This document shows, one piece after another, positions 3,104 through 23,511 of a stretch of DNA of 35,120 bases (positions within the stretch are counted from its first letter, which is position 1; each line of letters starts with the position of its first letter). Under the pieces are notes generated by a model. It had not been told where the DNA came from and searched no databases. It was given only the letters and a program-made list of their open reading frames with translations. This DNA comes from a virus: positions 1 to 35,120 of the IMG/VR virus record IMGVR_UViG_3300036800_000259; one strand, written 5' to 3'. The translations under genes and the position numbers were made by a program.

Positions 3104-3526
3104 ATGCTTCGTTCTGTTCTCATAGCGTTGCTCAGCATTGTCTCACTGTTACTGTTCACGCCTAGCGCTTCGGCGGCGACGTCGACGTTTCGTGATGTAG
3201 CGACGCTGCACTGCCTGGACTCGAATACGTCAGGCAATGTGTATGCGATCGGCTGCAATGGCGGCAACTTCCAGAACTGGATTAGTTCTGGTACGACCAC
3301 TACAGTTCGTGATGTCTCTACGCTGTTCTGTCTCGACTCGAATACCAATGGCAACGTCTACACACTGCCGTGTAATGGCGGCAACTTTCAGAAGTGGCGA
3401 GTAGAGCGATCAGGCCATCGCGTCGTTGATGTGGCTACCGGTCGCTGCCTCGACTCGAACACGGCTAACAGTGTCTACACTCTTCCGTGTAATGGTGGTA
3501 ACTTCCAGAACTGGTATCATAATTAA
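3104..3526 (+). CDS. secreted ricin-type beta-trefoil lectin, 140 aa
   Basis: Residues 1-24 are a signal peptide (basic start, hydrophobic core, ASA cleavage site). The mature part is three repeats of exactly 39 residues (29-59, 68-98, 107-137), each with RDVAT-x-x-CLDSNT, N-x-VY, CNGG and NFQ(N/K)W. The FQxW motif is the hallmark of ricin B/R-type lectins. The paired Cys 14 residues apart in each repeat (37/51, 76/90, 115/129) suggest one disulphide per lobe. A complete trefoil in a mature protein of about 116 aa is minimal. It is predicted to be exported and to bind carbohydrate. A GGGGGGAG ribosome site lies about 9 nt before the ATG. The gene stands alone between leftward genes, which fits a lysogenic-conversion or moron gene; its role for phage or host is unknown. 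Confidence 0.85.
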   Translation: MLRSVLIALLSIVSLLLFTPSASAATSTFRDVATLHCLDSNTSGNVYAIGCNGGNFQNWISSGTTTTVRDVSTLFCLDSNTNGNVYTLPCNGGNFQKWRVERSGHRVVDVATGRCLDSNTANSVYTLPCNGGNFQNWYHN

Positions 3527-7971: not shown

Positions 7972-8001
7972 TGTGTGCTCCTCGTTCTTGGTGTTAACAC
8001 T

Positions 8002-8026
8002 AGTGTACCACACACTGCACTGCCAC
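8002..8026 (-). promoter_or_regulatory. leftward cassette promoter, short class
   Basis: -10 TACACT (8002-8007). The 17-nt spacer is GGCAGTGCAGTGTGTGG and the -35 is TAGCGT. The -35 overlaps the right arm of a small hairpin (CGCTAG-tg-CTAGCG) that may end the upstream leftward gene. Confidence 0.75.
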
Positions 8027-8028
8027 GC

Positions 8029-8061
8029 TAGTGCTAGCGACTGGCTCACGTAGGTGGTGAT
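8029..8061. repeat. 3'-end hairpin repeat (copy 2)
   Basis: Contains CGCTAG/CTAGCG and a 29-nt segment (8033-8061) matching 7223-7251 with one difference. It lies immediately after the stop of the leftward gene ending at 8061. Confidence 0.55.
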
Positions 8062-8201
8062 CAGCAGTGGTATCGGATGTTGGTGAGCCTTGCGGTAGCG
8101 AACGCACCAGCAGCGGTGAAGAACCAGATAGCGCCAGGGATGGTGCCGAATGAGAAGATTCCGAGTACGACTGCGATGACTGCAATGAGGCTGAAGATCA
8201 T
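8061..8201 (-). CDS. small membrane protein, 46 aa
   Basis: Starts MIFSLIAVIAVVLGIFSFG and continues with a second hydrophobic segment (PGAIWFFTAAGAFATA), so two TM helices are predicted. The ATG overlaps the stop of a 14-codon leaderless ORF (ATGA), which puts its translation under coupling. Function unknown. Confidence 0.6.
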   Translation of the reverse strand: MIFSLIAVIAVVLGIFSFGTIPGAIWFFTAAGAFATARLTNIRYHC

Positions 8202-8242
8202 CGATAGGGTGGTGGCTGGCTGGTGGTCTCGCTCTTTCGCAT
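8198..8242 (-). CDS. 14-aa leaderless leader peptide
   Basis: MRKSETTSQPPPYR, with its ATG 6 nt behind a cassette -10 and its stop overlapping the next ATG (ATGA). The first codons match those of the gene at 6859 at DNA level. Most likely a leftover start region that now couples translation to the membrane-protein gene. Confidence 0.5.
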   Translation of the reverse strand: MRKSETTSQPPPYR

Positions 8243-8294
8243 AATGTAAGTGTAGCACACTCTATCACACACTGCACTACCACCACCTGAATGG
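8243..8294 (-). promoter_or_regulatory. leftward cassette promoter, long class
   Basis: -10 TACACT (8249-8254), TGTGC, GTGCAGT at long-class spacing, and the distal CACCTGAATGG. Six nt to the ATG at 8242. It borders the AT-rich repeat region. Confidence 0.8.
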
Positions 8295-8674
8295 ACTAGT
8301 GCATGAATACTCACAAAGTATTCACTAGGCATGATCAAATGAATACTATTACTTTAATAGTAATACACACAGTTACTCGTGGTCATTTACAGTGACAGTT
8401 TGAATACTTTCAAAGTAATAATGTAACACACGGTTACTATCAAAGTATTCTTTTGATCATGAATAAATATACATTGCAAATGCAAATGAGTAAGATTATA
8501 CTTTCATTTCATGATCAACTTGCAGGCTTAATCATTGTTTATTTGTTTCATGATCAACAAATGGGATGGTCACCATCATTTTTAGCGATGGTCATAACAA
8601 TATAATGAAGCTTGATTTGCATATTTACGAGAAACGAATGAGCACAAAATGATCTACGAGAAAACAAAAGATAG
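8295..8674. other. AT-rich non-coding region with iteron-like repeats
   Basis: About 380 nt without a credible gene and far more AT-rich than its surroundings. CATGATCAA occurs four times (around 8331, 8453 inverted, 8511 and 8550). Three palindromes built on the same theme are TGAATACT/AGTATTCA (8304-8324), TACTATTA/TAATAGTA (8344-8362) and TACTTT/AAAGTA (8405-8417). A further TCAAAGTATTC lies at 8440-8450, and ACACACNGTTACT occurs twice (8365 and 8426). This fits a replication origin with iterons, a multi-operator regulatory site or a partition-like site. Position between a promoter and the 3' end of a gene does not decide which. Confidence 0.6.
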
Positions 8675-10099
8675 CTAAATGATCTTGTGATAGTGCTTCG
8701 CAAGAACGCGTCGAGTCATCGCGCGGTAGCGGCGTGTCGAAGCAGGCCAAGGATTGACCACGCGGCCGGTAGCGGTCTTGTACCAGCTACGGCAGCTCCC
8801 CTGCCACACAGTATGCCGAAGGTTGTCTGCTAGCCAGCGCCGGTAGCCTTCCATTGCTTCAGCAGTGACTTCCACCGCAGAAGATTCGAGGCAGCGCAGC
8901 ACATAGCGCGTCTGACATTCGATCATGAAGATATTGCTGTTGTGTCCGAGAATCGTGTTCGGTCCGTGGACAAGGAACATATTCGGGAAGCCTGGCAGGG
9001 TCATGCCGAGATAAGCCTCAGCACCATTGCGCCACTGCTTGTGTAGGTCAATGCCGTCTCGACCGCGCACGTCCAGCGGCACCAGAAACTCTGAGGTTTT
9101 GAAGCCGGTAGCATAGATCAGCGCATCTGCGTAATGATGCCATCCGTCAGTGGTGACAACACCTGTTTCAGTTAGTCGTTTGATAGGTTCTGCGATCAGC
9201 TCGACGTTGGACCGGCACAGCGCGGGGTAGTAGTCGGAGTCGATGACGATCCGCTTGCAGCCGATCTCGTGCTGTGGAGTCAGCGCAGCCCGCAGCGCGG
9301 CATCGGGGACTTGACGGTGCAGGTGCCAGCGTGCCAGCCAGGCCAGCGGGCGAACAGTCCAGCCGCGGGTGAGAACTGGCGTGAGCAGTGTGTCCGCAGC
9401 CAGCCAGGTGCCAGCTCGATAAGCAGTGTGCAAGCCAGGAGTCCAGCGCAGCAGCGCTGCGGTTGCTTGGCTGAACTTCTGGGCTGGTTTGGGCAGGACC
9501 CAGTTCGGGGTGCGCTGGTAGACGTCGACCTGGCCGGCGATTTTCGCTAGTTGCGGCACGAGCTGAGCCGCACTGGACCCGGTACCGATCACAGCGACAC
9601 TCTTGCCGGTCAGATCGAGGTCGTGATCCCAGTGTGCGGTGTGGAATGACGGACCAAAGAATATGCCAGGTAGTTCTGGCGTGTACGGCCGGTGCAGCTG
9701 GCCGACAGCGAAGACCACGGCGTCAGCAGTGCAGGCAAAGCCGTCTAGCGATCTCAGTACCCACAGCGTGCCGTGCCACACAGCAGACATGATCGGCATA
9801 TCGCACCAGATATGCGGGCGAAGACCGAAGTCATCGGCAACTCGGCAGAGGTAGTCCAGGATCGCTGGTTGTTTCGGATACCGAAGCTGGGCATTCCGAT
9901 ACCGGGCGAACGAGAACGAGTAGAGATGACTCGGCACATCGCAGCCGCACCCTGGGTAGGTGTTCCACTGCCAGATGCCGCCGACTTCACTGCCTTTCTC
10001 GAACACCACGAAGTCATCGATACCAGCTTTCTTGAGCTGGACAGCCATACCAAGGCCGCCGAAGCCGGCACCGATAATCGCTACCCGCCAGTGCTTCAT
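8675..10099 (-). CDS. flavin-containing monooxygenase, type I Baeyer-Villiger type, 474 aa
   Basis: FAD- and NADPH-dependent oxygenase. Visible are the FAD Rossmann motif GAGFGG (10-15), EVGGIWQWNTYPGCGCDVPSHLY (39-60, typical of BVMOs), the BVMO fingerprint FxGxxxHxxxW(P/D) at 147-158 (FFGPSFHTAHWD), the NADPH Rossmann motif GTGSSAAQ (172-179) and the ATGF motif (YATGFKTSEF). Family members insert oxygen next to a carbonyl or oxidise S or N atoms; the substrate here is unknown. Its ATG overlaps the stop of the DUF2063-like gene (ATGA), so it is made together with the MNIO enzyme. Length is normal. It is unusual in a phage. Confidence 0.88.
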   Translation of the reverse strand: MKHWRVAIIGAGFGGLGMAVQLKKAGIDDFVVFEKGSEVGGIWQWNTYPGCGCDVPSHLYSFSFARYRNAQLRYPKQPAILDYLCRVADDFGLRPHIWCDMPIMSAVWHGTLWVLRSLDGFACTADAVVFAVGQLHRPYTPELPGIFFGPSFHTAHWDHDLDLTGKSVAVIGTGSSAAQLVPQLAKIAGQVDVYQRTPNWVLPKPAQKFSQATAALLRWTPGLHTAYRAGTWLAADTLLTPVLTRGWTVRPLAWLARWHLHRQVPDAALRAALTPQHEIGCKRIVIDSDYYPALCRSNVELIAEPIKRLTETGVVTTDGWHHYADALIYATGFKTSEFLVPLDVRGRDGIDLHKQWRNGAEAYLGMTLPGFPNMFLVHGPNTILGHNSNIFMIECQTRYVLRCLESSAVEVTAEAMEGYRRWLADNLRHTVWQGSCRSWYKTATGRVVNPWPASTRRYRAMTRRVLAKHYHKII

Positions 10100-10251
10100 T
10101 GAGCTTTCTCCAGGATGTTCAGAGCACGGCGAAGCACGCGGATCTTGTAGCTGTGCGCGTAGACGTCGAGCCGACCCGTGATGTGTTCGGTAGAGTTGCC
10201 TGTGAGAATAGCGGTCAGCATTGCTTGCTGTAGTGCTTGTAAGTTATCCAC
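10096..10251 (-). CDS. short DUF2063/BufC-like MNIO partner, 51 aa
   Basis: GTG start inside the end of the MNIO gene (8-nt overlap) and stop overlapping the monooxygenase ATG. The product VDNLQALQQAMLTAILTG then GRLDVYAHSYKIRVLRRALNIL follows the pattern of the N-terminal domain of DUF2063 (PF09836) proteins such as HvfC/BufC: LQxxFxxAL, then RLxVYxxNYxxRLxxAL. These partners bind the precursor and present it to the MNIO oxidase. The usual protein is 150-260 aa; here only the first helices remain and the gene then ends in a tight overlap, so it is either a minimal functional partner or a truncation. Assignment rests on motif pattern and position next to DUF692. Confidence 0.6.
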   Translation of the reverse strand: MDNLQALQQAMLTAILTGNSTEHITGRLDVYAHSYKIRVLRRALNILEKAQ

Positions 10252-11101
10252 AGATAGCTCTAGCTTTGTCTAGTTCGGTCACTAGTTCAGGAAAGCTAGG
10301 AATATTCGAGTCCCACTCCAGCAAAGTTGGCAGGTACTCACCCAGCGAAGTGCTGGCGTAGTGCTGAGCAAGCCGGTACAGCGACCATACTTCAGAGATC
10401 ACTGGTCGATCATGCGTATCGATCAATATCCCGCTGAAATCGTCGGTAAGATTCACCGCTGGGTTTAGCGGTGATTCACTGTGGCCTGCAATATGTAGGT
10501 AGGCGACAGCGCTCATCGGGAAGTTCTGGAGATACTCGATCGGGCTGCGTCCCTGGTTGTGCGCAGTGACGTAGGCGTTGTTCACGTCGAGCAGCAGACT
10601 GCAGCCGGTGCGGCCGATGAGGCATTTCAGAAACTCGGTCTCAGTCATCTCAGATGCTGACCACTGGATGTAGCTACTCGGGTTCTCCAGTACGAGTGGC
10701 CGGTCCAGGTACTCCTGCACCGCGTGCACCCGGCTGGTGACGTGCGCCAGTGTCTCTTCAGTGAGTGGCAGCGGCAGCAGGTCGTGGGTGTCGACGCCGG
10801 CCACGCCAGTCCAGCACAGGTGATCAGAAATCCACCGCGGATTGGTTTGCTGAGCAAGGATCTTCAGCTTGTGCAGGTAGTCGAAGTCTAGCGGGTCGGT
10901 ACCACCGATGTTCAGCGAGACGCCATGCAGCGCGATCCGCTTGTGCGCCAGGATTCTGGCCAGCACTCGGGAGCCAAGGCCGTCGAAGAAGTCTTCTGAG
11001 ATGATCTCGAACCAGTCGACACCCCACTGTTCTGACGGTGTGGTCATCAGGTAGTGGTGGTGCGGCCAGCGCAGCCCGACGCCGAAGCTGAGATTATTCA
11101 T
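10244..11101 (-). CDS. DUF692 multinuclear non-heme iron oxidase (MNIO), 285 aa
   Basis: TIM-barrel oxidase of the MbnB/TglH/BufB family, which uses two or three iron ions to oxidise Cys residues of peptides (to oxazolone-thioamide, thiooxazole, or by carbon excision). Nearly all family signatures are visible: GVGLRWPHHHY (8-17), DWFEIISEDFF (29-39), LHGVSLNIGG (58-67), ISDHLCW (91-97), LLPLPLTEE (108-116), LENPSSY (138-144), CSLLLDVNNAYV (167-178), YLHIAGH (201-207), IDTHDRP (227-233), EVWSLY (237-242), LLEWDSNIP (260-268). The usual His, Asp and Glu ligands are all present. The start at 11101 overlaps the stop of the wHTH gene (ATGAATAA); the longer frame upstream is antisense to conserved wHTH coding and is rejected. 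A phage-encoded MNIO is unusual. Confidence 0.92.
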   Translation of the reverse strand: MNNLSFGVGLRWPHHHYLMTTPSEQWGVDWFEIISEDFFDGLGSRVLARILAHKRIALHGVSLNIGGTDPLDFDYLHKLKILAQQTNPRWISDHLCWTGVAGVDTHDLLPLPLTEETLAHVTSRVHAVQEYLDRPLVLENPSSYIQWSASEMTETEFLKCLIGRTGCSLLLDVNNAYVTAHNQGRSPIEYLQNFPMSAVAYLHIAGHSESPLNPAVNLTDDFSGILIDTHDRPVISEVWSLYRLAQHYASTSLGEYLPTLLEWDSNIPSFPELVTELDKARAICG

Positions 11102-11525
11102 GCTCACCAGCTTCTTGACGATGCTGCCGTGCCAGCGCACGGGCACTATTTCGATTGTCAGCGCAAGCTGACCAACCACAGACACATACTGCTTTAGACG
11201 CTTGACTGACCAACATTACTCGATCACGCCCGTTGGGCCGGAATCGCATGTCCATCTCATTACTGAGAAGGAACGTGCGTGTCTTGTGTTGAGCAGGTAG
11301 TGGGAATAAAGCAATAGCATTCCATCCAGCATGAGTAATGTGATCTGTTAATCCATAATGTATAGCAAGCCCAAGTTTAGCAAGTCGGTTGAACACCTGT
11401 GTCGAACAGCGGATTCGTCCATGGTCATCTACAGAGTCCAACGCTCGTATCATAGCTGGAGTGATCTCGCTGATGGAGAATATACCCATTGAGCTGATAA
11501 AAGTGGTGGCGTTGGTTTTGCTCAT
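11094..11525 (-). CDS. winged-helix protein with C-terminal Cys motif, 143 aa, leaderless
   Basis: Residues about 17-75 (ISEITPAMIRALDSVDDHGR, CSTQVFNRLAKLGLA, LTDHITHAGWNAI) fit a small winged-helix DNA-binding domain. The C-terminus VCVCGWSACADNRNSARALARQHR resembles the short CxCGW zinc/treble-clef motif of actinobacterial phage proteins. The ATG is 7 nt behind a short-class cassette -10, and the stop overlaps the MNIO start, so it is the first gene of the MNIO-DUF2063-monooxygenase operon. A role as local regulator, possibly of the cassettes themselves, is an inference. Confidence 0.75.
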   Translation of the reverse strand: MSKTNATTFISSMGIFSISEITPAMIRALDSVDDHGRIRCSTQVFNRLAKLGLAIHYGLTDHITHAGWNAIALFPLPAQHKTRTFLLSNEMDMRFRPNGRDRVMLVSQASKAVCVCGWSACADNRNSARALARQHRQEAGEHE

Positions 11526-11556
11526 AGTTCAGACACTACCACATACTGCACTGTCA
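11526..11556 (-). promoter_or_regulatory. leftward cassette promoter of the MNIO operon, short class
   Basis: -35 TTGCAT, 17-nt spacer GACAGTGCAGTATGTGG, -10 TAGTGT (11533-11538), 7 nt to the ATG at 11525. One of the best -35/-10 combinations among the cassettes. Confidence 0.8.
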
Positions 11557-11562
11557 TGCAAC

Positions 11563-13407
11563 TCACGTTGCCGGTGGTAGTACGAGACGAAGATCGTTGG
11601 GTGGCTCTGCTTCACCTAGTTCTGAACCTTCGAGGTACTTGTAAGCACGTATCGCTACTTCGTGCACTGGCTCTCCCTTAGCAAATTTCATCTGATCAAC
11701 TGGCTGACTGTCGTTGTCGTAAAGTTGCATCGTCCCGCTCTGCACGAGCAGCTGGGATGCTGCGATCGGGACTGCACAGCCGCCCTGGCCGGCGCAGGCG
11801 TTGGCACTGGGAGCGCTGAACAGGCCATTGGTAGCGGCTTTGGCCTTCACTGCAGCGAAGCCATGCTGGCCAGGCTGCGCAGCGCTGATCTTCTGTACGA
11901 AGCCACAGCCGCCTTGACCAGCGCAGTTGTTCGCGCCGCGGCAGGAGTGGTAGACCCCGATCGCAGCGCAGGTGTTGCCTGGCTCTGTCAGGTTCAGGCC
12001 CTGGCAGGCATGCGCAGGCCTACTGACAGAGCCAGTGTCAGCGCCTACTGACAGGTCTGGCGGCAGTTCGAACAGCGCCCAGCTCATGGTCATCCGGTCA
12101 CCGGAGCCGACCATCGCCGGGTAGGGGAAGATCACATCAGGACCAGCCCAGTATTGGTTGAGTACAGTTGTGATGCCGGCCAGCGAGCCTACCGCGGCCT
12201 GGTTGAACAGTGGTCGCATCAGCTCAGGTGATGAGGCTATGCGGTTCATCGCATCAGCGACGTCAACAGCACTGGGGATGTCGTAGAGACTGGGCGCCGT
12301 CTCTCCAGGTTGCAAATCGTCAGCTGTCCACGGACCATGCTCCTGGTGCCAAGCTGGCCAGGTTGTCACCTGATCGATCATCTCTAGCAGAGTAGAGAAT
12401 CGGTCGTAGTGGTCCCAGTCTCCGTAGGTGTAACGAGCCACCGCATCGGCTGAGGGAGCCAGCTCTCCGGTATCACTGTACGAGGGGTAGTCGGCTTCCA
12501 TCGCTGTTTGATCTGCTTCGTATTGTGTCGCTACTTCTGACGGGTCATCAGAACGCTGGTCAAGTACGGAGCCCTCGCCTTGGTCGGTAATGGCGTTCAT
12601 CATCGCTAATGCTTGTGAGTACGCTTTCGCTGGGTTAGCTGTGGTAATGAGAGTCCGAAAGCCGGTGTACTCTTTCTGAGGATGGCCGGTGTTCTCGACA
12701 TTGAACAGATCATTCTGCTGGGAGTCGGGAACGAATACGTGATCCCAGAGTGTCAAACCATCTTCATAGACGAAGCTCAGATACTCGTAATAGCATGAGT
12801 ACATCCAGCCGATAGTGCCGAACATCGGCAGGTCGACTTCGGTCATCTCTTCAGTCCAGCCAGCAAATGGCACAGCGGGAAAGTATTTCTCGGGTGCGGT
12901 GATATGACTTTGAGACGTTACTTCGGACTCTTCGATGATCAGGAACAGCTCTAGTTGAGTAGCTGTGAGGCCATCGATTCTTACCATGGATTCGTGGTGC
13001 ACAGTGTCTTTCAGATCTACGACATGCGGTATGACAGAGCTGTCGTAGCAGGTCCAGCCGTACTGCTCATCCTGCAGCACTGGTGAGGTGAACAGCGGTG
13101 TCACGCCGATGGCGCTGGCAAGATTGGCAGCGAGCTGTAGATGTAACATCTCTTCGACATGCACTGAGAACATGAGATTGTAGGCAGTCTCGTTGGCGGT
13201 CTGCGGGCTGGCTGTGGTCGCCGCTCCTGGCCACCAGCGGCCGGTGTAGAAGTTGCTGTCCTTGCCCGTGATCTGGTGCATGTCGGCGATTGAGGTAGCA
13301 GCGGCGAGGTACAGCGGGATGGTGAACAGTTCGACGTTGACGCATGCTTGGGCGATGGCGCGCACCGCAGCGGCATCAGCGGATCTAGCAGAGACTGGCC
13401 TTGTCAT
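11563..13407 (-). CDS. VioB/ferritin-like protein with Cys-rich C-terminus, 614 aa; candidate MNIO substrate
   Basis: The N-terminal part is a ferritin-like four-helix domain of the iminophenyl-pyruvate dimer synthase (VioB) type: VNVELFTIPLYLAA (23-36) and HVEEMLHLQLAANL (83-96) carry the usual Glu and ExxH iron ligands, and GDWDHYDRF (329-337) and EESE (159-162) are further candidates. The C-terminal part holds seven Cys (468, 480, 489, 495, 501, 538, 544) in the motifs HACQGLN, NTCAAIG, HSCRGANNCAGQGGCG and NACAGQGGC. Such Gly/Asn-flanked Cys are typical of peptides modified by MNIO enzymes; an MNIO gene lies 0.5 kb downstream. The start overlaps the methyltransferase stop (ATGA). The VioB fold is well supported; the substrate role is an inference. 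Confidence 0.8.
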   Translation of the reverse strand: MTRPVSARSADAAAVRAIAQACVNVELFTIPLYLAAATSIADMHQITGKDSNFYTGRWWPGAATTASPQTANETAYNLMFSVHVEEMLHLQLAANLASAIGVTPLFTSPVLQDEQYGWTCYDSSVIPHVVDLKDTVHHESMVRIDGLTATQLELFLIIEESEVTSQSHITAPEKYFPAVPFAGWTEEMTEVDLPMFGTIGWMYSCYYEYLSFVYEDGLTLWDHVFVPDSQQNDLFNVENTGHPQKEYTGFRTLITTANPAKAYSQALAMMNAITDQGEGSVLDQRSDDPSEVATQYEADQTAMEADYPSYSDTGELAPSADAVARYTYGDWDHYDRFSTLLEMIDQVTTWPAWHQEHGPWTADDLQPGETAPSLYDIPSAVDVADAMNRIASSPELMRPLFNQAAVGSLAGITTVLNQYWAGPDVIFPYPAMVGSGDRMTMSWALFELPPDLSVGADTGSVSRPAHACQGLNLTEPGNTCAAIGVYHSCRGANNCAGQGGCGFVQKISAAQPGQHGFAAVKAKAATNGLFSAPSANACAGQGGCAVPIAASQLLVQSGTMQLYDNDSQPVDQMKFAKGEPVHEVAIRAYKYLEGSELGEAEPPNDLRLVLPPAT

Positions 13408-14498
13408 GCTGGCAGGCTAGCGGTTCGCTCCAGCCGTTGGATGCTCCAGGCGATCGAGTCAGGATCGCTGTCGATCAAGATAGCTGACATGCCCTCAGCG
13501 CGGGCAGCCTCACCGGTACTACCGCTGCCGGCGAACATATCGAGCACAGTTCCGTCCGGTGGAGTGATCAGTCGTATTAGCCAGCGCATGAGTGCTAGTG
13601 ATTTGACCGTATTATGTGATTTGCCGTCGATCTTAGGCCGTTCTGAGGTGGGCGCTTTAGCCTGATATCGAAAGACAGGAAAAAATCGAGATGCACCGCC
13701 GTTGTCTAAATATTCGGCTCCAGTAGCTTTCATTCCCCAACCATTACCTGGTATTTTCGACGTACAGGGTTTTCCAACTGTAGAAAGGCTATTGCCGCTT
13801 TGATGGTCTAGTTCAGCCACTGGGCAGCCGTCTACGCACCCATCAGCGCAAGCGTCGTATCCGTCTGGCGTATTGGCATGGCTAATGATCACATTCGATG
13901 GCCATCGACCATCAGCACCGGGTACCATATAATTTGTGGCTTTACCCCAAGACATTGGCTGTGGTGCCGTTCCTTGGTGATTACCATTAGAATGTGTTGT
14001 GCGCGGCTTTGTATTTACTCGACAAGCGTTAATATTGAGTGCGCCGACACCATGTTTGAGAACTATTGCGGCAACGGCACCATTGAACGGCTTACGCACC
14101 AACCACCAGTGCTCACTGGCTGGTTTAAGAACTGACTTGCTCTTTGGGAAGCCAGTTCCAAACAAGTGTGTAATGCAGTCTCTAATCTCAAAACCAGCAT
14201 CTTCGAGAGCTAGTGCGGTCCAGTGTGAAGTGCGTGGTAGTGCCCAGACCAGCGCGTGACCTCCTGGCTTGAGCACTCGATAGGCTTCTTCCATGCGTTC
14301 GGTAAGCCAGTCGACCCACTTATCTCGGCCACCTCGATCTTTATCCCAGCCTTTGCCCATGAAAGCGATGCCAGCAGGCGGATCAGTGACGATAGAGTCG
14401 ATACTGTTAGTAGGGGTATCCCAGAGATGATGCAAGCAGTCACCTCGCCAGAGCTGCACGTTACGTTGATCATATTCGAGTACTGGCGAAGTAAGCAT
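13404..14498 (-). CDS. DNA methyltransferase (N6-adenine/N4-cytosine type), 364 aa, leaderless
   Basis: SAM-dependent amino-methyltransferase of the beta arrangement. The catalytic motif IV comes first (IVTDPPAGIAFMGKGWDKD, DPPA at 39-42), and the SAM motif I near the C-terminus (VLDMFAGSGSTGEAA, FAGSGSTG at 322-329). The aromatic residue usual in DPPY is replaced by Ala, as in a subgroup of phage enzymes. A middle insert with several Cys (DACADGCVDGCPVAELD) may bind zinc. No restriction gene is adjacent, so it is probably an orphan enzyme protecting phage DNA. The ATG is 6 nt behind a long-class cassette -10, and the stop overlaps the ferritin-like gene. Confidence 0.9.
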   Translation of the reverse strand: MLTSPVLEYDQRNVQLWRGDCLHHLWDTPTNSIDSIVTDPPAGIAFMGKGWDKDRGGRDKWVDWLTERMEEAYRVLKPGGHALVWALPRTSHWTALALEDAGFEIRDCITHLFGTGFPKSKSVLKPASEHWWLVRKPFNGAVAAIVLKHGVGALNINACRVNTKPRTTHSNGNHQGTAPQPMSWGKATNYMVPGADGRWPSNVIISHANTPDGYDACADGCVDGCPVAELDHQSGNSLSTVGKPCTSKIPGNGWGMKATGAEYLDNGGASRFFPVFRYQAKAPTSERPKIDGKSHNTVKSLALMRWLIRLITPPDGTVLDMFAGSGSTGEAARAEGMSAILIDSDPDSIAWSIQRLERTASLPA

Positions 14499-14540
14499 AC
14501 GTGAAGTCTACCACATCTTATCTCATACTGCACTGAGGAG
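14499..14540 (-). promoter_or_regulatory. leftward cassette promoter of the methyltransferase/ferritin-like operon, long class
   Basis: -10 TAGACT (14505-14510), TGTGG, then GTGCAGT at long-class spacing. Six nt to the ATG at 14498. Its right end (GAGGAG) is the ribosome site for the rightward gene at 14546. Confidence 0.8.
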
Positions 14541-14545
14541 AGCTG

Positions 14546-14824
14546 ATGTCGGGACCGACTGCGCTGGGCTCTTACCTCGCACAGGTGCGCCTGCTGCCGG
14601 CTGAGCTAGTGGAGCGGGAGAGCTGTCTCGTACAGATCGGCCGCCAGCACGCCATGGCGTTCGACCAGGGCCACCAGCCGAGTGGCTGCGCACTGCAGCG
14701 GGTCCTGGCGGAGCTGCGCAAGCTAGCGCAGGAGAAAGAACGAGTCGCGCTGGGACGGCCGAAGAGTAACGATCTAGACCGGATTCGAGCTAAGCGTGAT
14801 AAGCGGCTGAGCAATGGTGCTTAG
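14546..14824 (+). CDS. candidate terminase small subunit, 92 aa
   Basis: An all-helical small protein (LGSYLAQVRLLPAELVERES, then ALQRVLAELRKLAQEKERV) with a basic tail, located one insertion module upstream of TerL. Position and the LxELRxL helix fit the very short small-terminase proteins annotated in some actinophages, which recognise phage DNA. There is no specific motif to prove it; it could equally be a hypothetical helical protein. Ribosome site GAGGAG 6 nt before the ATG. Confidence 0.45.
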   Translation: MSGPTALGSYLAQVRLLPAELVERESCLVQIGRQHAMAFDQGHQPSGCALQRVLAELRKLAQEKERVALGRPKSNDLDRIRAKRDKRLSNGA

Positions 14825-15018
14825 ATGGTGTTGCTTTGATCTGTGATCAATTGCAAAGTTTGTACTAGCCCATCTGCGACAGCATTACGATATTTAGTGG
14901 ATTTTTGGTCACCTCTTTCGAGAGCAGTTTGCGCACCACGTACGTGATCATGATAAGCTTCGCGGATTTTTGCAGCTTGTCTGTTAGCGACTTGTTGCTC
15001 AAGTGATGTGTTAAACAT
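14821..15018 (-). CDS. hypothetical helical protein, 65 aa, leaderless (insertion module)
   Basis: ATG 6 nt behind a short-class cassette -10. The product MFNTSLEQQVANRQAAKIRE is charged and helical, with no Cys. Its stop overlaps the stop of the rightward gene (TTAG), and its promoter cassette supplies the ribosome site of TerL. It is therefore a compact leftward insertion between two late genes. AT-richer than the flanking genes. Confidence 0.7.
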   Translation of the reverse strand: MFNTSLEQQVANRQAAKIREAYHDHVRGAQTALERGDQKSTKYRNAVADGLVQTLQLITDQSNTI

Positions 15019-15060
15019 AACTGGATACTACCACAGACTGTACTGCCAAGCAAGAGGGAG
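15019..15060 (-). promoter_or_regulatory. leftward cassette promoter and TerL ribosome site, short class
   Basis: -35 TTGCTT, 17-nt spacer GGCAGTACAGTCTGTGG, -10 TAGTAT (15025-15030), 6 nt to the ATG at 15018. On the plus strand the cassette ends GAGGGAG, 5 nt before the GTG of TerL. Confidence 0.85.
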
Positions 15061-15065
15061 CCAGT

Positions 15066-16514
15066 GTGTCTGCTCCTAAGCTGGTCGGCAGTCAGGTGCC
15101 ACGGATCGAGTCGGTACCACCGTGGGCAACCAGCTCCGGTGCTGATGCGATCGAGCTAGCTGCACTGACCGGCATGCCGATGGACCCGGCACAGAAGCGG
15201 ATCCTCTGGGGAGCGCTAGGGCACACTGAAGATGGCGACTGGTCAGCGCCTGAGGTCGGTCTGGTCGTGCCGCGGCAGAACCTCAAGACAGTGACCATGC
15301 AGGTAGCCGCGCTGCACGCGGTGTTTCTGATGAAGTCTCGCGTTATCTACACCAGCCACATCATGACGACGACGCAGAAGATCCATGAAGAAACCATACG
15401 CATGATCGAGAACGCGCCTGATCTCGATCGTGAGGTCAAGAAGGTCAAAGCTAGTACCAATGATTACTCGATCACATTGCGGTCAGGCGCGAGAATAGAT
15501 TTCGTTGCCCGAACCGCCACGAGTGCCCGTGGCTGGTCGGGATATGATGTGATCCTCATGGATGAGGCATTTGCGCTGGCCGCTACCCAGACAGGCGCGT
15601 TGATGCCGATTCTCTTTGCACGGCAGAACTGGCAGATCTGGTATATCTCCAGTGCTGGCCAGAAAGATTCTGACGCGTTGCGCAGGATACGCAACCGTGG
15701 CATCGAGAAAGATCCGGGACTGGCCTACTACGAGTGGTCGGTGCCCAGTGAGGTCTATCAGGCCGCACCTGAGTATGTCGCGAACATGCCTGCTGCTTGG
15801 GCGCAAGCCAATCCTGCTCTCGGAATACGGATCAAGCCTAAGACACTGCAGATCGCCCAGCGGTCTATGCCGGAAGAGCAGTTTGCTCGTGAAGTGTTAG
15901 GCGTCTGGGAAGATCCACTGGGCGCGCCGATCATCGACCTCAACTTGTGGTCACTGCTGGCCGACCCTCTGTCGTCAATTTCAAGTCAGATGGTGTTCTC
16001 GATAGAAGTTGACGAAGATCTATCGTACGGCTGCATTTCAGTGTCTGGCTACCGGTCGGATGGCATCCCGCACGTTGAGGTGACCAGCCGGGATGAGGTG
16101 CTGGATCATCGTCAGGGCGTGGCGTGGTTGATAGAACGGGCTGCAGAGCTACAGGAGCAGTGGTCGCCGGCAGCCTGGGTACTCGATCCAGCGGGACCGG
16201 CAGGAGCGCTGCTGGAAGACCTCCGAGCCGCGGGCATCGAACCTGAGCTAGTCGGGGTACGTGAGCTAGGACAGGCGTGCGGTGCATTGCACAAGGCCAC
16301 CACCACGATAGACGAGTTACGTCACCTCAACCAGCCTTGTGTCGCTGAAGCGATCCGGATAGCGCAGAAGCGGGACATCGGTGACGGTCTGTGGAGCTTC
16401 AGTCGCCGACGCAGCGAGGACAGCGTATCGCCGGTACTCGGGATCGCACTAGCGTTGCATGGGCTCGCGGTGTACGGAGCGCGGGCTTACGACGTGCTGG
16501 AGTCGATGTGTTGA
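15066..16514 (+). CDS. terL: terminase large subunit, 482 aa
   Basis: ATP-driven DNA packaging motor and nuclease. The ATPase part shows the atypical Walker A VVPRQNLKT (67-75), Walker B VILMDEA (162-168) and a coupling region ISSAGQKDSDAL, the usual pattern of actinophage terminases. The C-terminal half has nuclease-type acidic residues (FSIEVDED and WVLDPAGPAGALLEDL). Full family length. GTG start behind GAGGGAG. It marks the start of the morphogenesis region. Confidence 0.93.
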   Translation: MSAPKLVGSQVPRIESVPPWATSSGADAIELAALTGMPMDPAQKRILWGALGHTEDGDWSAPEVGLVVPRQNLKTVTMQVAALHAVFLMKSRVIYTSHIMTTTQKIHEETIRMIENAPDLDREVKKVKASTNDYSITLRSGARIDFVARTATSARGWSGYDVILMDEAFALAATQTGALMPILFARQNWQIWYISSAGQKDSDALRRIRNRGIEKDPGLAYYEWSVPSEVYQAAPEYVANMPAAWAQANPALGIRIKPKTLQIAQRSMPEEQFAREVLGVWEDPLGAPIIDLNLWSLLADPLSSISSQMVFSIEVDEDLSYGCISVSGYRSDGIPHVEVTSRDEVLDHRQGVAWLIERAAELQEQWSPAAWVLDPAGPAGALLEDLRAAGIEPELVGVRELGQACGALHKATTTIDELRHLNQPCVAEAIRIAQKRDIGDGLWSFSRRRSEDSVSPVLGIALALHGLAVYGARAYDVLESMC

Positions 16515-16615
16515 GAAAACTCCTGATCGTGAGTGTAGCGGGATTGGCTTGGTGGGGTCTGGCTACGCTGGCCTATGAGCTGATGAGTCTGACGACACCG
16601 AAGTGTCCTGACTAG
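16508..16615 (+). CDS. small membrane protein, 35 aa
   Basis: GTG inside the end of TerL (7-nt overlap). The product LRKLLIVSVAGLAWWGLATL continues AYELMSLTTPKCPD and has one predicted TM helix with a basic start. Its stop shares CTAG with the stop of the opposite gene. It could be holin-like or a small accessory membrane protein; too short to assign. Confidence 0.5.
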   Translation: MLRKLLIVSVAGLAWWGLATLAYELMSLTTPKCPD

Positions 16616-16803
16616 AGTTTTCTGTATTTTCTGATGTGTTGTTGAATAGCTTTGATTTGTGGGGATAGCATGTTACTGCCGAGATCAGTATCAGAGTATA
16701 TCTCTAGTCGATCTATGAAGTCATTCCAATCAATGCGCGTATCTTCTGTGAACCATCCGTCATAGACGTTTTCTGCTGCCGCTAGTAACTCTGTGTCAAG
16801 CAT
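16612..16803 (-). CDS. hypothetical acidic protein, 63 aa (insertion module)
   Basis: AGGAG 9 nt before the ATG, so unlike most modules this one uses a ribosome site, and no cassette promoter is visible. The product is acidic and aromatic (ENVYDGWFTEDTRIDWNDFI, then DRLEIYSDTDLGSN) with a basic C-terminal helix (IKAIQQHIRKYRKL). Convergent with the rightward gene, sharing a CTAG stop overlap. The acidic character would suit a DNA-mimic or inhibitor, which is speculation. Confidence 0.65.
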   Translation of the reverse strand: MLDTELLAAAENVYDGWFTEDTRIDWNDFIDRLEIYSDTDLGSNMLSPQIKAIQQHIRKYRKL

Positions 16804-16822
16804 GTGAGTAGGCTCCTGCTCT

Positions 16823-17014
16823 GTGCGGCTGATACATGAGATCGTGATCCTGGCGCTGGAGGTGCTGGGCATCCTGTTGGTGGCGGCTGGGCTGGGCTTC
16901 CTGGTGGCTGTCTGGATCGGCTGGGCTGGGCTGGCGGTGACCGGCGTCGTGCTGCTGGGTGCTGCTGCGCTCGTCGCCCGACGCCAGCGCGAGATGTCAT
17001 CTCCTACTAAGTAA
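16823..17014 (+). CDS. small membrane protein, 63 aa, two TM helices
   Basis: GTG start. Hydrophobic segments about 7-34 (IVILALEVLGILLVAAGLGF and on) and 35-52, followed by a basic tail RRQREMSSPTK. A holin-like layout (two helices, basic end) but also common in other small phage proteins. It lies between two leftward modules and overlaps the second by 18 nt. Ribosome site is weak. Confidence 0.55.
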   Translation: MRLIHEIVILALEVLGILLVAAGLGFLVAVWIGWAGLAVTGVVLLGAAALVARRQREMSSPTK

Positions 17015-17164
17015 TTCTTGGCAATGTGGGCAGTCGACAAGACGATCGGTGAGAATAAATTTCTTAGGGCGATGTTCTTGTGAGATGCGACAGAGCGGCC
17101 ATAGATATTCAGGGTCTCCATTACGATGAACAATGTGTTTGTCACTGTAGGCAATATTTTGCAT
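16997..17164 (-). CDS. small zinc-ribbon-like protein, 55 aa, leaderless (insertion module)
   Basis: ATG 6 nt behind a short-class cassette -10. The product MQNIAYSDKHIVHRNGDPEY continues with WPLC and CPHCQ (Cys25, Cys45, Cys48), a probable zinc-binding site. A leftward insertion between late genes; its promoter cassette provides the ribosome site for the 48-aa gene at 17214. Confidence 0.65.
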   Translation of the reverse strand: MQNIAYSDKHIVHRNGDPEYLWPLCRISQEHRPKKFILTDRLVDCPHCQELLSRR

Positions 17165-17208
17165 AACTAGATACTACCACAGACTGTACTGTCACGCAAG
17201 CAAGGGAG
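17165..17208 (-). promoter_or_regulatory. leftward cassette promoter, short class
   Basis: -35 TTGCGT, 17-nt spacer GACAGTACAGTCTGTGG, -10 TAGTAT (17171-17176), 6 nt to the ATG at 17164. The plus-strand end AAGGGAG lies 7 nt before the ATG at 17214. Confidence 0.85.
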
Positions 17209-17213
17209 CCCGT

Positions 17214-17360
17214 ATGCCGTGCTCCGAAGATCAGACTGCACTGTGCTTTAGCTGCACAGACGTCCAGCATCTGGAGACAGAGCTAGCGCATTTACAGATC
17301 TTGCTGGCTGTGTTCGCGTGGCCCTGGCCAAAGCTGCTGCAGGGGAGCGACATTTCGTGA
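17214..17360 (+). CDS. hypothetical protein, 48 aa
   Basis: ATG behind AAGGGAG. The product MPCSEDQTALCFSCTDVQHL has three Cys and continues as a helix (ETELAHLQILLAVFAWPWPK). Its stop overlaps the portal GTG (GTGA), so it probably serves translational coupling to the portal gene. No family recognised. Confidence 0.55.
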   Translation: MPCSEDQTALCFSCTDVQHLETELAHLQILLAVFAWPWPKLLQGSDIS

Positions 17361-18583
17361 GCTTGCTATTCCGGACAGCCAATATCGAGGGGCCGTACTT
17401 CGGCGAGTTCCCCGGTGCGATGGCCTCTGATGTGATCCCACATCGGCTGAGTATGCAGCTTGCACCGGGTCACATGATCAACAACGACTCGGCACTACGG
17501 CACTCAGCGGTCTGGGCTTGCTTGCGGTTACGCGCGAACCTGATCTCGACGTTTCCGATCGACTGCTACCGCAAGGGTCAGTACGGCATCGCTGATGTTG
17601 AGGTGACCAAGCCACCGATCCTGATCAACCCTGGTGGTGAGTGCGTCGACTACATGGAGTGGATGTACAGCACACAATTTGACCTTGATCGTGCCGGCAA
17701 CAGCATCGGCCTGATCACCGAACGCAATGGCTTCGGCCTGCCGGCTGTGATCCAGCTAGTGCCGCTGGCCTGGGTGTCGGTGAACATCGTGGACAACGTG
17801 CTGGTGGAGTACTTTATCCGTGGTCATCCTTACCCTCCGCGGCAGATCTGGCACGAGAAACAGTACACAGTCGCAGGTTTTCACTTAGGGCTGTCTCCGA
17901 TTATGTATGCTGCCTGGAGCATCGGTGAGCACTTGAGTATTCAGGATTTCGCTATCTCTTGGTTCACTAATGGTGGTATCCCGCGTGGTCATCTGCAGAA
18001 CACCATGCTCCCGACACCAACTCGTGACCAGATGCGCGATGTTAAGGCGTTGGTGAAAGAATCAGTGAACAGCGGTGATGTGCTGGTCACTGGCAAGGAC
18101 TGGGAATACAATATGGTTCAAGCCGAACAGACGGGAATGGAATGGATCGAAGCTCGCAAACTTGGCCCCACTGAGATAGCGCGATTCTTCGACTGCCCTT
18201 CTGACTTGATTGACTCAGCTATTTCTGGGTCAAGCGTAACTTATGCGAATGTGACTCAGAGAAACTTGCAATTCCTAACAATGAGTCTCGGGCCAACAAT
18301 TATTCGTCGTGAGAATAGCTTGAACAAGCTATTGCCTAATCGCCAGTTCTGCAAGCTGAACACCAAAGCGTTGTTGCGTATGGACCCACTGACGCAAGCA
18401 CAGATCATCAATCTTCAGGTAGCTGGCCGCGTGCTCACCCCGTCTGAAGCTCGCTTGCTTGACGATCGGCCACCACTGACCGCTGCGGACAGAGCTGAGT
18501 TCGACCAACTGTGGCCGCCACGTCCGCAGCCTGGACCGACAACACCATCGCCTACCGCCCCTGTACCTGCTGAATCTGAGTAA
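17357..18583 (+). CDS. HK97-type portal protein, 408 aa
   Basis: Dodecameric portal through which DNA enters and leaves the head. Family hallmarks are HSAVWACLRLRANLISTFPI (about residues 50-69), the central LDRAGNSIGLI region, the NGGIPRGHL loop and the GMEWIEARKLGPTEIARFFDCPSDLI block, followed by a Pro-rich disordered tail. The GTG at 17357 overlaps the upstream stop and has AGGGGAG 9 nt before it, so it is preferred over a GTG at 17318. Confidence 0.9.
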   Translation: MSLLFRTANIEGPYFGEFPGAMASDVIPHRLSMQLAPGHMINNDSALRHSAVWACLRLRANLISTFPIDCYRKGQYGIADVEVTKPPILINPGGECVDYMEWMYSTQFDLDRAGNSIGLITERNGFGLPAVIQLVPLAWVSVNIVDNVLVEYFIRGHPYPPRQIWHEKQYTVAGFHLGLSPIMYAAWSIGEHLSIQDFAISWFTNGGIPRGHLQNTMLPTPTRDQMRDVKALVKESVNSGDVLVTGKDWEYNMVQAEQTGMEWIEARKLGPTEIARFFDCPSDLIDSAISGSSVTYANVTQRNLQFLTMSLGPTIIRRENSLNKLLPNRQFCKLNTKALLRMDPLTQAQIINLQVAGRVLTPSEARLLDDRPPLTAADRAEFDQLWPPRPQPGPTTPSPTAPVPAESE

Positions 18584-18589
18584 TTGTTT

Positions 18590-18751
18590 CTAGCCCCAGT
18601 CCTGGCTGTCAGCGACATCACGAGCAATGCTAGTGATCATGTTTACGTGCCATGCGCACATAGTCTTTAGCTCTTCCTCACCATTTTCTCGTGTGACCAC
18701 AAGAGTGGCGTCAGCATCGCGCTTGCAGTGATGTGCTGGACATTTGCTCAT
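18590..18751 (-). CDS. small zinc-binding protein, 53 aa, leaderless (insertion module)
   Basis: ATG 7 nt behind a short-class cassette -10. The product MSKCPAHHCKRDADATLVVT has CPAHHC at the start and CAWH at 32-35, a likely zinc site. It converges on the portal gene with a 6-nt gap. Function unknown. Confidence 0.7.
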   Translation of the reverse strand: MSKCPAHHCKRDADATLVVTRENGEEELKTMCAWHVNMITSIARDVADSQDWG

Positions 18752-18793
18752 AAGCTAGACACTACCACAGACTGTACTGTCAACGCAAGGGAG
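18752..18793 (-). promoter_or_regulatory. leftward cassette promoter, short class
   Basis: -10 TAGTGT (18759-18764), spacer block GACAGTACAGTCTGTGG, -35 TTGCGT at 18 nt. Seven nt to the ATG at 18751. The plus-strand end AAGGGAG serves the GTG at 18801. Confidence 0.85.
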
Positions 18794-18800
18794 ATCTCTC

Positions 18801-19250
18801 GTGACTGTCAACCGCGCACGTACCGGCACGTTCCGTCCGGCTGCTGCGACACCGCCGGTGACCCGGCAGAACGTGACACCGACCAGCCAGCGGCAGGCCA
18901 GCAGCTTCCGCGTGGGTGAGCTGACGCGGGCTGCGACCTTGGATCGAGCGGACATCAAGAGCAAGACCGGTAAGCCGAAAGATGATGAGTCGTTGTTCGC
19001 TGATGACAAAGAGAAGATCTCGGTGCAGAAAGACGCCGCAACCGAAGATGAGAAGGACAAGGACAAGAAAGATGCTGACGAAGCGGTAGGTGTGAAGAAA
19101 GCTGCTGGTGATGCAGACGACTTTGAGCCGATGCATGGTGATCTGACGATTGACGACGACGACTCGAATGCTCACTCATCGACGCCAGCTAAGAATGACA
19201 CTGGAGTACCGAGTACGCCTAGCGGTGTGAAGGCTCCGAGTAACGCCTGA
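18801..19250 (+). CDS. disordered charged protein between portal and protease, 149 aa (scaffold-like)
   Basis: Pro/Thr-rich N-terminus, then a very acidic and Lys-rich low-complexity middle (ATEDEKDKDKKDADEAVG) and an acidic run DDDDS near the end. No fold expected. Position between portal and prohead protease and the charge pattern allow a scaffolding or accessory assembly role, but this is inference. The stop overlaps the next ATG (TGATG). Confidence 0.6.
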   Translation: MTVNRARTGTFRPAAATPPVTRQNVTPTSQRQASSFRVGELTRAATLDRADIKSKTGKPKDDESLFADDKEKISVQKDAATEDEKDKDKKDADEAVGVKKAAGDADDFEPMHGDLTIDDDDSNAHSSTPAKNDTGVPSTPSGVKAPSNA

Positions 19251-20233
19251 TGCCGTACTCCGTCGCGCACGGTGGCGGCATGTGCGGTGCTTCGCAATGG
19301 GCCGTGCTGAAAGACTCCGATGGTTCGACAATGGGCTGTCACGACACCAAAGATCAAGCAAACGCGCAGCTATCGGCGCTCTACGCTCACGAGAGTTCGA
19401 GGATGATTGATCTAGAGGTGACGCGGGCCGGTGCCGCTCGCATGCGCCGGGAGGCGATCGAGAACACCGACGTGCCAGGGCTGAAGCTGGCACGCTCCGC
19501 ACAGCCACTCGACGTCGGTACCTCCCGCACGCTGGCATTTCCCGCCCAACTGACAGCCGGCCTGCACCGCCGCGGCTGCTCTGACACCGCGTGCGAGTGT
19601 GCCAGGGCGCCACAGGATGACGGTGACAGCCTCTGGCATCGGCTCGCTGGTGTGGCCTCAGTGGTGGAGACACCGTATGAGATGTGGGATATGTTCGGTC
19701 CTTATACCGAGAAAGTCTCTTCACGAGCGTTCGAGGCATCACTGTCTCGGCAGCCTGACGTCGCATTCCTGGTCAACCACAAGGGCTTGACCATGGCTCG
19801 GACTACTAACGCCACATTGAAACTCAGCTCTAGTGAAGATGGTTTGGCCACTGAAGCATGGCTCAATCCACTGCGCACTGACGTCTCGGATCTCATGGTG
19901 GCGATCAAAGACGGTTGTGTCGACCAGATGAGTTTCGCCGCCATGTTGCAAGAAGGTGAGTGGGACGATGAGTACACGACTTTCACCATGCTGGAGCTCG
20001 ACTTGCACTGTGGCGACGTCAGCGCCGTTAACTATGGAGCTAACCCGCATACAAGCATCTCAGCAAGAGCACATCGCTTGCTTAACGAAGTTGATCGTCT
20101 ACCTTCTGGCGCAGCACGCGCAGCATTGAGCCAGTTACAGGCGCGATTCGACAAGCCTGAGGACAAGTCGAGACAGGCCAGCGGCCGGTCGATCAGTCTG
20201 ATTCGGAGTGCGTTACTCGCTGACGAAGGTTAA
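19250..20233 (+). CDS. HK97-family prohead protease with N-terminal extra domain, 327 aa
   Basis: Serine protease that matures the capsid. The protease domain runs from about residue 130 (RLAGVASVVETPYEMWDMFG) with the catalytic His177 in FLVNHKG and Ser228 in DQMSFA, and ends with DVSAVNYGANPHTSI, the usual S78-type pattern. Residues 1-48 are a separate small domain (HGGGMC, WAVLKDSDGSTMGCHDTKDQ, ALYAHES) often seen fused to actinophage head proteins. It follows the scaffold-like gene by direct stop/start overlap. Confidence 0.88.
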   Translation: MPYSVAHGGGMCGASQWAVLKDSDGSTMGCHDTKDQANAQLSALYAHESSRMIDLEVTRAGAARMRREAIENTDVPGLKLARSAQPLDVGTSRTLAFPAQLTAGLHRRGCSDTACECARAPQDDGDSLWHRLAGVASVVETPYEMWDMFGPYTEKVSSRAFEASLSRQPDVAFLVNHKGLTMARTTNATLKLSSSEDGLATEAWLNPLRTDVSDLMVAIKDGCVDQMSFAAMLQEGEWDDEYTTFTMLELDLHCGDVSAVNYGANPHTSISARAHRLLNEVDRLPSGAARAALSQLQARFDKPEDKSRQASGRSISLIRSALLADEG

Positions 20234-20382
20234 GTGTTTTCTTTACTTAGTTTTCGTAATTCTTGTGCTCGAACCCGTAACTGTCCTACGGCTAAAGCAA
20301 GACCAAAGCTAAAGTCTTGTGATTTTCTTGCTAAAGCTGCGATGACATCAGCCATACGCTCAAGCTCATCTGCAGTATCCAT
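20230..20382 (-). CDS. hypothetical helical protein, 50 aa, leaderless (insertion module)
   Basis: ATG 6 nt behind a canonical TATAAT. Product MDTADELERMADVIAALARK continues QDFSFGLALAVGQLRVRAQE; heptad-like and fully helical. Its stop overlaps the protease stop (TTAA). Its promoter differs from the repeated cassette. Confidence 0.65.
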   Translation of the reverse strand: MDTADELERMADVIAALARKSQDFSFGLALAVGQLRVRAQELRKLSKENT

Positions 20383-20394
20383 GTAGTGATTATA
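20383..20394 (-). promoter_or_regulatory. leaderless promoter with consensus -10, not of the cassette family
   Basis: TATAAT (20389-20394 on the plus strand as ATTATA) followed by 6 nt and ATG. Upstream there is no GACAGTGCAGT block and only a weak -35 (TGTAAC at 18 nt). Confidence 0.65.
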
Positions 20395-20433
20395 GACCCC
20401 CGCCGGCTGGCGGTTACAGGAGGAAGGACCGTT

Positions 20434-21855: not shown

Positions 21856-21892
21856 ATCAACTTCTCGAGCTAATGGTTTGAGGAGATGAAGC

Positions 21893-22105: not shown

Positions 22106-22118
22106 GGAGCGCTATCTT

Positions 22119-23498: not shown

Positions 23499-23511
23499 TC
23501 GGAGGTGTCAG

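What the first reader, a model, noticed from the sequence alone, without database searches (positions are those of the whole stretch)
8675..13407. Phage-borne MNIO (DUF692) modification locus with a VioB/ferritin-like protein and a flavin monooxygenase
Seen: three leftward genes overlap stop-to-start (MNIO, 51-aa DUF2063-like, monooxygenase), led by a winged-helix gene that also overlaps the MNIO start. A ferritin-like gene with repeated Cys-Gly motifs lies directly upstream on the same strand. Known: MNIO enzymes such as MbnB, TglH and BufB oxidise Cys residues of ribosomal peptides and usually need a DUF2063-type or similar partner. Inference: this phage carries a complete post-translational modification pathway. 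Its product could bind metal, alter host physiology, or act as a toxin or defence factor. I know of no described phage locus with this gene set.
Basis: partly seen in the sequence, partly recalled or inferred. Interest (0 to 1): 0.9.

Follow-up and report, generated by a model that had tools for sequence, protein, structure and literature searches.

The report
Phage-borne enzyme modifying a ferritin-like protein
An uncultured phage carries a three-gene bacterial cassette that probably oxidises cysteines in a flexible tail of a ferritin-like protein; the same cassette is an unreported, widespread operon in bacteria, and the phage has shrunk the enzyme's helper protein from about 280 to 51 amino acids.

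Summary
The locus is real and lies inside a tailed-phage contig, beside the terminase gene. Its conserved core is three genes: a ferritin-like protein with a Cys-rich tail (11563-13407), an MNIO/DUF692 enzyme (10244-11101) and a 51-aa DUF2063-like partner (10096-10251). A genome scan that used only N-terminal ferritin-like motifs returned 50 bacterial loci. In 48 of them the same three genes follow in the same order (Actinomycetota, Pseudomonadota, Bacteroidota, Acidobacteriota); the other two are a decayed copy and a contig end. Six tail cysteines are invariant in 30 aligned proteins. The tail is predicted disordered, and in two actinobacteria it is a separate small gene in an operon with MNIO, partner and ferritin-like protein. 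The tail is therefore the likely MNIO substrate. A second phage keeps the three-gene core under purifying selection but lacks the monooxygenase and the 'winged-helix' gene. A third has the monooxygenase beside the terminase genes without the MNIO cassette. Those two are separate cargo. I found no published account of ferritin-like MNIO substrates or of a phage MNIO in the library searched. The chemistry (probably Cys to 5-thiooxazole) and the benefit to the phage are inferred.

The parts
11563..13407 (-). Ferritin-like (PF12902) protein, 614 aa, with Cys-rich tail; probable MNIO substrate
   Evidence: Pfam PF12902 E=9.5e-20; 48 bacterial homologues, each followed by MNIO and DUF2063 genes; dN/dS 0.11 against L002; AF2 pLDDT 82
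11776..12006 (-). Cys-rich tail segment (residues 468-544): HxCQG ... YHxCxGxNxCxxxGGCGF ... APxxNxCxxxGGCAVPIxxxQ; six invariant Cys
   Evidence: C468, C489, C495, C501, C538, C544 conserved in 30/30 sequences; low pLDDT (<50) over most of 460-545; homologous to separate small Cys proteins in L080/L084
10244..11101 (-). MNIO enzyme (formerly DUF692), 285 aa, BufB-like
   Evidence: PF05114 E=3.6e-92; NCBIfam BufB 302.6 bits, cut-off 310; conserved residues aligned with 3BWW; dN/dS 0.08
10096..10251 (-). 51-aa mini-partner, remnant of a DUF2063 partner protein (Q8, R27, Y31, Y35, R38 invariant), no RRE
   Evidence: Alignment A3; best of 337 window ORFs against a cell-only partner profile, E=0.009; dN/dS 0.21, Fisher p=8e-5; conserved at 52-53 aa in L002
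11537..11561 (-). Promoter-like phage repeat (TTGCAT, 17 nt, TAGTGT), 11 nt upstream of the 143-aa gene, the first gene of the unit 143-aa gene-MNIO-partner
   Evidence: 4 copies in the window, 0 expected in shuffles; exact equivalent before the MNIO unit in L002
11094..11525 (-). 143-aa unidentified gene between ferritin-like gene and MNIO; not part of the conserved core
   Evidence: No Pfam/NCBIfam/PHROG family; replaced by an unrelated 53-aa Cys-containing ORF in L002 (read)
8675..10099 (-). Flavin monooxygenase (type I BVMO-like), neighbouring independent cargo
   Evidence: Pyr_redox_3 and FMO-like above cut-off; absent from G001; present without the cassette in L060
13404..14498 (-). N4/N6 DNA methyltransferase, directly upstream and overlapping the ferritin-like gene; absent at this place in L002
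   Evidence: PF01555 E=4.3e-27; no match in L002
15066..16514 (+). Terminase large subunit: phage context
   Evidence: phrog_9 E=3.9e-55; portal, protease and major head protein follow

Best explanation
It is a phage-carried version of a bacterial MNIO cassette whose substrate is a protein, not a small peptide. The MNIO, activated by the 51-aa mini-partner, oxidises cysteines in the flexible tail of the ferritin-like protein inside the infected cell. By analogy with every characterised MNIO-DUF2063 pair, the product is probably 5-thiooxazole. The modified tail then binds a metal (copper or iron) next to the ferritin-like, probably di-iron, domain, making a cytosolic metal-handling or redox protein that serves the phage during infection. 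Shown by sequence: family membership, the conserved three-gene order, invariant cysteines, purifying selection in phages, and partner reduction. Inferred: substrate identity (strong), 5-thiooxazole chemistry (moderate), metal role and phage benefit (weak).
For: All 48 uncut bacterial relatives, found through N-terminal motifs only, have ferritin-like + MNIO + DUF2063 in that order. Six tail Cys are invariant in a segment predicted disordered while the rest folds well. The Cys segment and ferritin-like domain are separate genes around an MNIO-partner pair in L080 and L084; the Cys homology scores 24.9 bits against a shuffled maximum of 10.7. PF12902 proteins without the tail show no MNIO next to them in the two short loci inspected, L070 and L075. 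Both phages keep the core under purifying selection. MNIO residues are conserved. Characterised MNIO-PME1 pairs install 5-thiooxazole and generally bind Cu (PMC12668002).
Against: No experiment exists. The window MNIO falls just below the BufB cut-off (302.6 against 310), and FonBC did not accept some non-EGKCG Cys motifs, so the chemistry may differ. The phage tail lacks one near-invariant Cys (column of residue 515). The phage partner lacks most of DUF2063 and the whole RRE, so activity is not assured. No copper gene was recognised among the recurrent flanking genes.
Confidence: 0.6

Rival explanations
1. The ferritin-like protein is an oxidative enzyme, like the PF12902 domain of VioB in violacein synthesis, and the MNIO builds a protein-derived cofactor or metal site in its tail. 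The cassette then makes a small molecule or oxidant rather than storing metal.
For: Large conserved fold with invariant N24-E26, E86xxH89, E159 and QGEG. A phosphatidylserine-decarboxylase-type gene (PF12588+PF02666 in the two tested) neighbours the cassette in 5 of 48 loci from three phyla. No Sec signal by inspection, so not a periplasmic metal buffer. In the phage a flavin monooxygenase lies next to it.
Against: The decarboxylase is absent from most loci and from the phage. The monooxygenase is not linked in other phages. No substrate is known.
Confidence: 0.27
2. The phage cassette is a decaying remnant: the MNIO is inactive because its partner is truncated.
For: Partner cut from about 280 to 51 aa; long MNIO branch in the tree; lost tail Cys at the column of residue 515.
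Against: dN/dS 0.08 (MNIO), 0.11 (ferritin-like), 0.21 (mini-partner, p=8e-5) between two phages with dS about 0.6-0.9. Nearly the same partner length in both phages, no leftover of the missing part downstream, all conserved MNIO residues kept.
Confidence: 0.12
3. The MNIO acts on another host or phage protein, and the ferritin-like protein is a helper enzyme.
For: In L080 and L084 the ferritin-like protein is a separate gene without the tail, so it also has a role of its own.
Against: In those loci the Cys-rich segment is itself encoded directly before the MNIO, as a RiPP precursor would be; in all others it is fused.
Confidence: 0.1
4. The first reader's five-gene pathway, including the monooxygenase and a winged-helix regulator.
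For: Stop-start overlaps in the window.
Against: Absent from G001 and from bacterial loci; the monooxygenase occurs without the cassette in L060.
Confidence: 0.04

Closest known systems
Bufferin / captophorin clusters (BufABC, HvfABC, FonABC): Cys-rich precursor + MNIO + DUF2063-RRE partner
   Same: Order precursor, MNIO, partner; BufB-like MNIO; Cys-rich modified segment. The Pseudoalteromonas MNIO homologue passes the BufB model (346 against 310 bits).
   Different: The Cys segment is the tail of a 600-800-aa ferritin-like protein; no Sec signal seen; different Cys motifs; BufA2 model only 7.7 bits (cut-off 60); in the phage the partner is 51 aa with no RRE.
PME-type 2 short MNIO partners (PMC12452194)
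   Same: DUF2063-like partner without a full RRE, encoded after the MNIO
   Different: 51-53 aa, shorter than the smallest example named in that paper's text (115 aa); related to full-length DUF2063 partners in homologous operons
PF12902 ferritin-like family (VioB-like; Caulobacter CC_0557, PDB 3HL1)
   Same: Fold and conserved helices
   Different: 3HL1 is about 317 residues and its matched stretches cover only the ferritin-like part; no published MNIO link found
Prophage-carried RiPP clusters such as sublancin on SPbeta (own knowledge)
   Same: Phage carrying a modification-enzyme cassette as cargo
   Different: Different enzymes; no exporter or immunity gene here

Membership tests
MNIO (MbnB/TglH/ChrH, PF05114) | Pfam model above cut-off | tested here: met
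   308.8 bits, cut-off 25
MNIO (MbnB/TglH/ChrH, PF05114) | Conserved metal-site residues, including the site-3 N, D and H needed in HvfB | tested here: met
   H59, D93, H94, E139, N140, D172, N174, N175, H203, D228, H230, E262 invariant in 20 sequences; DVNN and DTH motifs align with 3BWW (site-3 roles from PMC13419390)
BufB equivalog (NF050167) | Score above 310 | tested here: not met
   Window 302.6; Pseudoalteromonas homologue 346.3 passes
Bufferin (BufA1/BufA2) precursor | BufA model match | tested here: not met
   BufA2 7.7 bits, E=3.9
Bufferin (BufA1/BufA2) precursor | Sec signal peptide | tested here: not met
   By inspection: N-terminus runs straight into ferritin helix 5-37; no signal-peptide predictor run
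DUF2063 partner (PME-type 1) | PF09836 above cut-off and RRE domain | tested here: not met
   Phage 13.3 bits, cut-off 27.2, 51 aa, no RRE. Bacterial partners L006 and L007 pass (57.2 and 67.8 bits)
Ferritin-like PF12902 | Pfam model above cut-off and fold | tested here: met
   71.8 bits, cut-off 22.3; Foldseek 3HL1 E=3e-9
5-thiooxazole metallophore (captophorin) | Cys converted to 5-thiooxazole; Cu binding | not testable with these tools
   Needs mass spectrometry/NMR and metal assays
Type I BVMO (monooxygenase) | FAD/NAD folds plus FxGxxxHxxxW[P/D] fingerprint | tested here: met
   FMO-like 50.8 bits, cut-off 22; FFGPSFHTAHWD read; activity untested

The most novel reading that the evidence does not exclude
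A new class of MNIO-matured proteins, in which a ferritin-like enzyme carries a post-translationally built metal or cofactor tail, has been captured by phages. These run the MNIO with a two-helix 51-aa activator that lacks any RRE, which would separate the activating role of the partner from its substrate-binding role.
Probability: 0.4. Interest if true: 0.85.

Novelty: new variant of a known kind. Interest (0 to 1): 0.7.

Why it matters
It adds to MNIO substrates a conserved, multi-phylum family of large ferritin-like proteins that the 2025 MNIO landscape paper does not mention in its main text. It also gives a natural minimal partner: HvfC was recently shown to be needed for the active mixed-valent iron state of HvfB, but which part of the partner does this is open. 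The 51-aa phage version makes that directly testable. And it shows phages carrying a cysteine-oxidising protein-maturation cassette under selection.

Tried and rejected
Known phage relatives: none in 50,697 INPHARED records by DNA (window 8600-24000) or by tblastn with the ferritin-like protein and the MNIO; none by fold in BFVD. Three further IMG/VR pattern scans with wider alignments found only this phage group, but such scans see close subfamilies only. Host: terminase hits are mostly actinobacterial phages at about 35% identity, the ferritin-like protein groups with Pseudonocardiaceae, but only the query genome itself among 397 Actinomycetota genomes had a full-length relative (one weak 23-bit match elsewhere), so the host stays unknown. 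MNIO tree placement of the phage is unresolved. Structured RNA: no Rfam match in 8000-15500. Bacterial contamination rejected: the locus lies between phage helicase and terminase genes in two divergent contigs. A winged-helix regulator was not supported by family searches.
Full report
What is there. The window is a 35,120-base IMG/VR virus record with terminase, portal, head protease and major head protein genes rightward of 15 kb. Leftward of the terminase lies a block of leftward genes: a DNA methyltransferase (13404-14498), a 614-aa ferritin-like protein (11563-13407), a 143-aa gene (11094-11525), an MNIO enzyme (10244-11101), a 51-aa gene (10096-10251) and a flavin monooxygenase (8675-10099). 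The winged-helix label is not supported by Pfam, NCBIfam or PHROGs.

Which genes belong together. A second phage record (L002, in the 71,198-base G001) shares terminase, portal, protease, head protein and helicase with the window. It carries ferritin-like gene, MNIO and a 52-53-aa partner, but neither monooxygenase nor 143-aa gene nor methyltransferase in this region. G001 also encodes DNA polymerase, primase/helicase, exonuclease, endolysin and tape measure protein. A third record (L060) has the monooxygenase (91% identical) beside the terminase genes with no ferritin-like or MNIO gene between. Two further records are cut inside the ferritin-like gene at the same place beside the terminase (L003, L057/L061); L057 appears to be the same phage species as L002. 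So the phage unit is ferritin-like + MNIO + mini-partner, and the monooxygenase is separate cargo.

Bacterial counterpart. tblastn against plasmids found a full-length homologue (34%) on Pseudoalteromonas replicons, followed by an MNIO and a 291-aa DUF2063 protein. A genome scan with an alignment, whose search patterns lay only in the N-terminal ferritin-like part (AQAxxNVE, YxGRxWPG), gave 50 loci. In 48 of them (L007-L054) the ferritin-like gene is followed by MNIO and DUF2063 on the same strand. The two exceptions are a decayed copy lacking the MNIO (L055) and a contig end (L056). Many of the 48 are close relatives (Sphingomonas, Pseudoalteromonas), but they span Actinomycetota, Pseudomonadota, Bacteroidota and Acidobacteriota. 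The family is rare: in a sample of 397 Actinomycetota genomes only the query genome gave a full-length match.

The substrate. In 30 aligned ferritin-like proteins six tail cysteines are invariant, in the motifs HxCQG, YHxCxGxNxCxxxGGCGF and APxxNxCxxxGGCAVPIxxxQ. A seventh, at the column of residue 515, is nearly invariant but is His in the window. An AlphaFold2 model has mean pLDDT 82 with a well-folded body; pLDDT is below 50 over most of residues 460-545, which holds the cysteines. Foldseek matches only 3HL1, a ferritin-like protein. In Saccharothrix sp. NRRL B-16314 and another genome of the same order, a second type of locus has a small Cys-rich protein, MNIO, DUF2063 partner and a separate PF12902 protein in a row (L080, L084). 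Its Cys segment is homologous to the fused tail: 24.9 bits, E=1.7e-7 in 154 ORFs; best of about 1,000 shuffles 10.7 bits. This 'split in some, fused in others' pattern supports the tail as the MNIO substrate and a joint function with the ferritin-like domain. As a small control, two PF12902 proteins without the tail in these genomes (L070, L075) have no MNIO in the roughly 3.6-kb loci inspected.

The partner. Bacterial partners in these loci are about 250-300 aa with DUF2063 above cut-off in those tested. The phage ORF covers only the N-terminal part of this domain, including Q8, R27, Y31, Y35 and R38, which are invariant across 17 sequences, and nothing of the rest. It is the best of 337 window ORFs against a profile made only from bacterial partners (E=0.009, next 0.5), and no leftover of the missing part lies downstream. 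On its own this score is marginal; the position directly after the MNIO makes the assignment convincing. AlphaFold2 gives two helices at low global confidence (pTM 0.40). In HvfBC the partner is needed for activity and for the mixed-valent iron state (PMC13419390), so a natural 51-aa partner without an RRE is a useful test case.

Selection and expression. Between window and L002, dN/dS is 0.11 (ferritin-like), 0.125 (Cys part), 0.08 (MNIO) and 0.21 (mini-partner; Fisher p=8e-5), against 0.03-0.08 for other phage genes. A promoter-like element occurs four times in the window (0 in shuffles), each on the minus strand; one copy lies just before the 143-aa gene that heads the MNIO unit, and the exact equivalent precedes the unit in L002. 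The cassette is thus wired into the phage's own expression system (inference).

Mechanism. Shown by sequence: families, order, conservation, selection. Inferred: MNIO plus mini-partner oxidises tail Cys in the cytosol. All characterised MNIO-PME1 products carry 5-thiooxazole and generally bind Cu (PMC12668002), so the likely product is a metal-binding tail on a ferritin-like body. Unlike bufferins, the substrate has no Sec signal (by inspection), no BufA match, and no recurrent neighbour of a known bufferin type was identified. A phosphatidylserine-decarboxylase-type gene recurs beside 5 of 48 loci from three phyla, which keeps the enzyme/cofactor rival open.

Novelty. The MNIO landscape paper does not contain the words ferritin, VioB or phage in its main text, and literature searches found no report. 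One study linked marine DUF692-type RiPPs to phage interaction by co-expression on the host side, not phage-borne (PMC11118758). Supplementary files could not be read, so the family may be listed there.

Noticed in passing
L080:2832-6454 and L084 (same order, second genome): Split version of the cassette: separate small Cys-rich protein, MNIO, DUF2063 partner and PF12902 protein, followed on the other strand by a conserved gene of unknown family (L080:6503-7648).
   Followed up: partly
L009:9609-10919, L028:922-2235, L029, L033, L048: A phosphatidylserine-decarboxylase-type gene (PF12588+PF02666 in the two tested) recurs beside the bacterial cassette in three phyla; a clue to the pathway.
   Followed up: partly
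window 11537, 15029, 17175, 24229 (minus strand): Repeated promoter-like element TTGC.TG.CAGT.CAG..TGTGGTA upstream of leftward genes that face the structural genes.
   Followed up: partly
window 3104-3526; L002:15346-15768: Small secreted-looking protein with three CLDSNTxGNVYxxxCNGGNFQNW repeats, ricin-B-lectin-like by eye, in both phages.
   Followed up: no
window 30535-31200 (-): Leftward ORF LDLCCCAGGSARGYQLAGFHVTGVDI..., methyltransferase-like by eye, inserted among the tail genes.
   Followed up: no
L055:5899-7133 (Pseudoalteromonas peptidolytica): Decayed copy: a 125-aa ferritin-like fragment directly followed by the partner gene, MNIO missing.
   Followed up: no
L002:9861-10022: In the second phage a different 53-aa Cys-containing ORF (MNERCTCEYPV...) replaces the 143-aa gene, also overlapping the MNIO start.
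   Followed up: no
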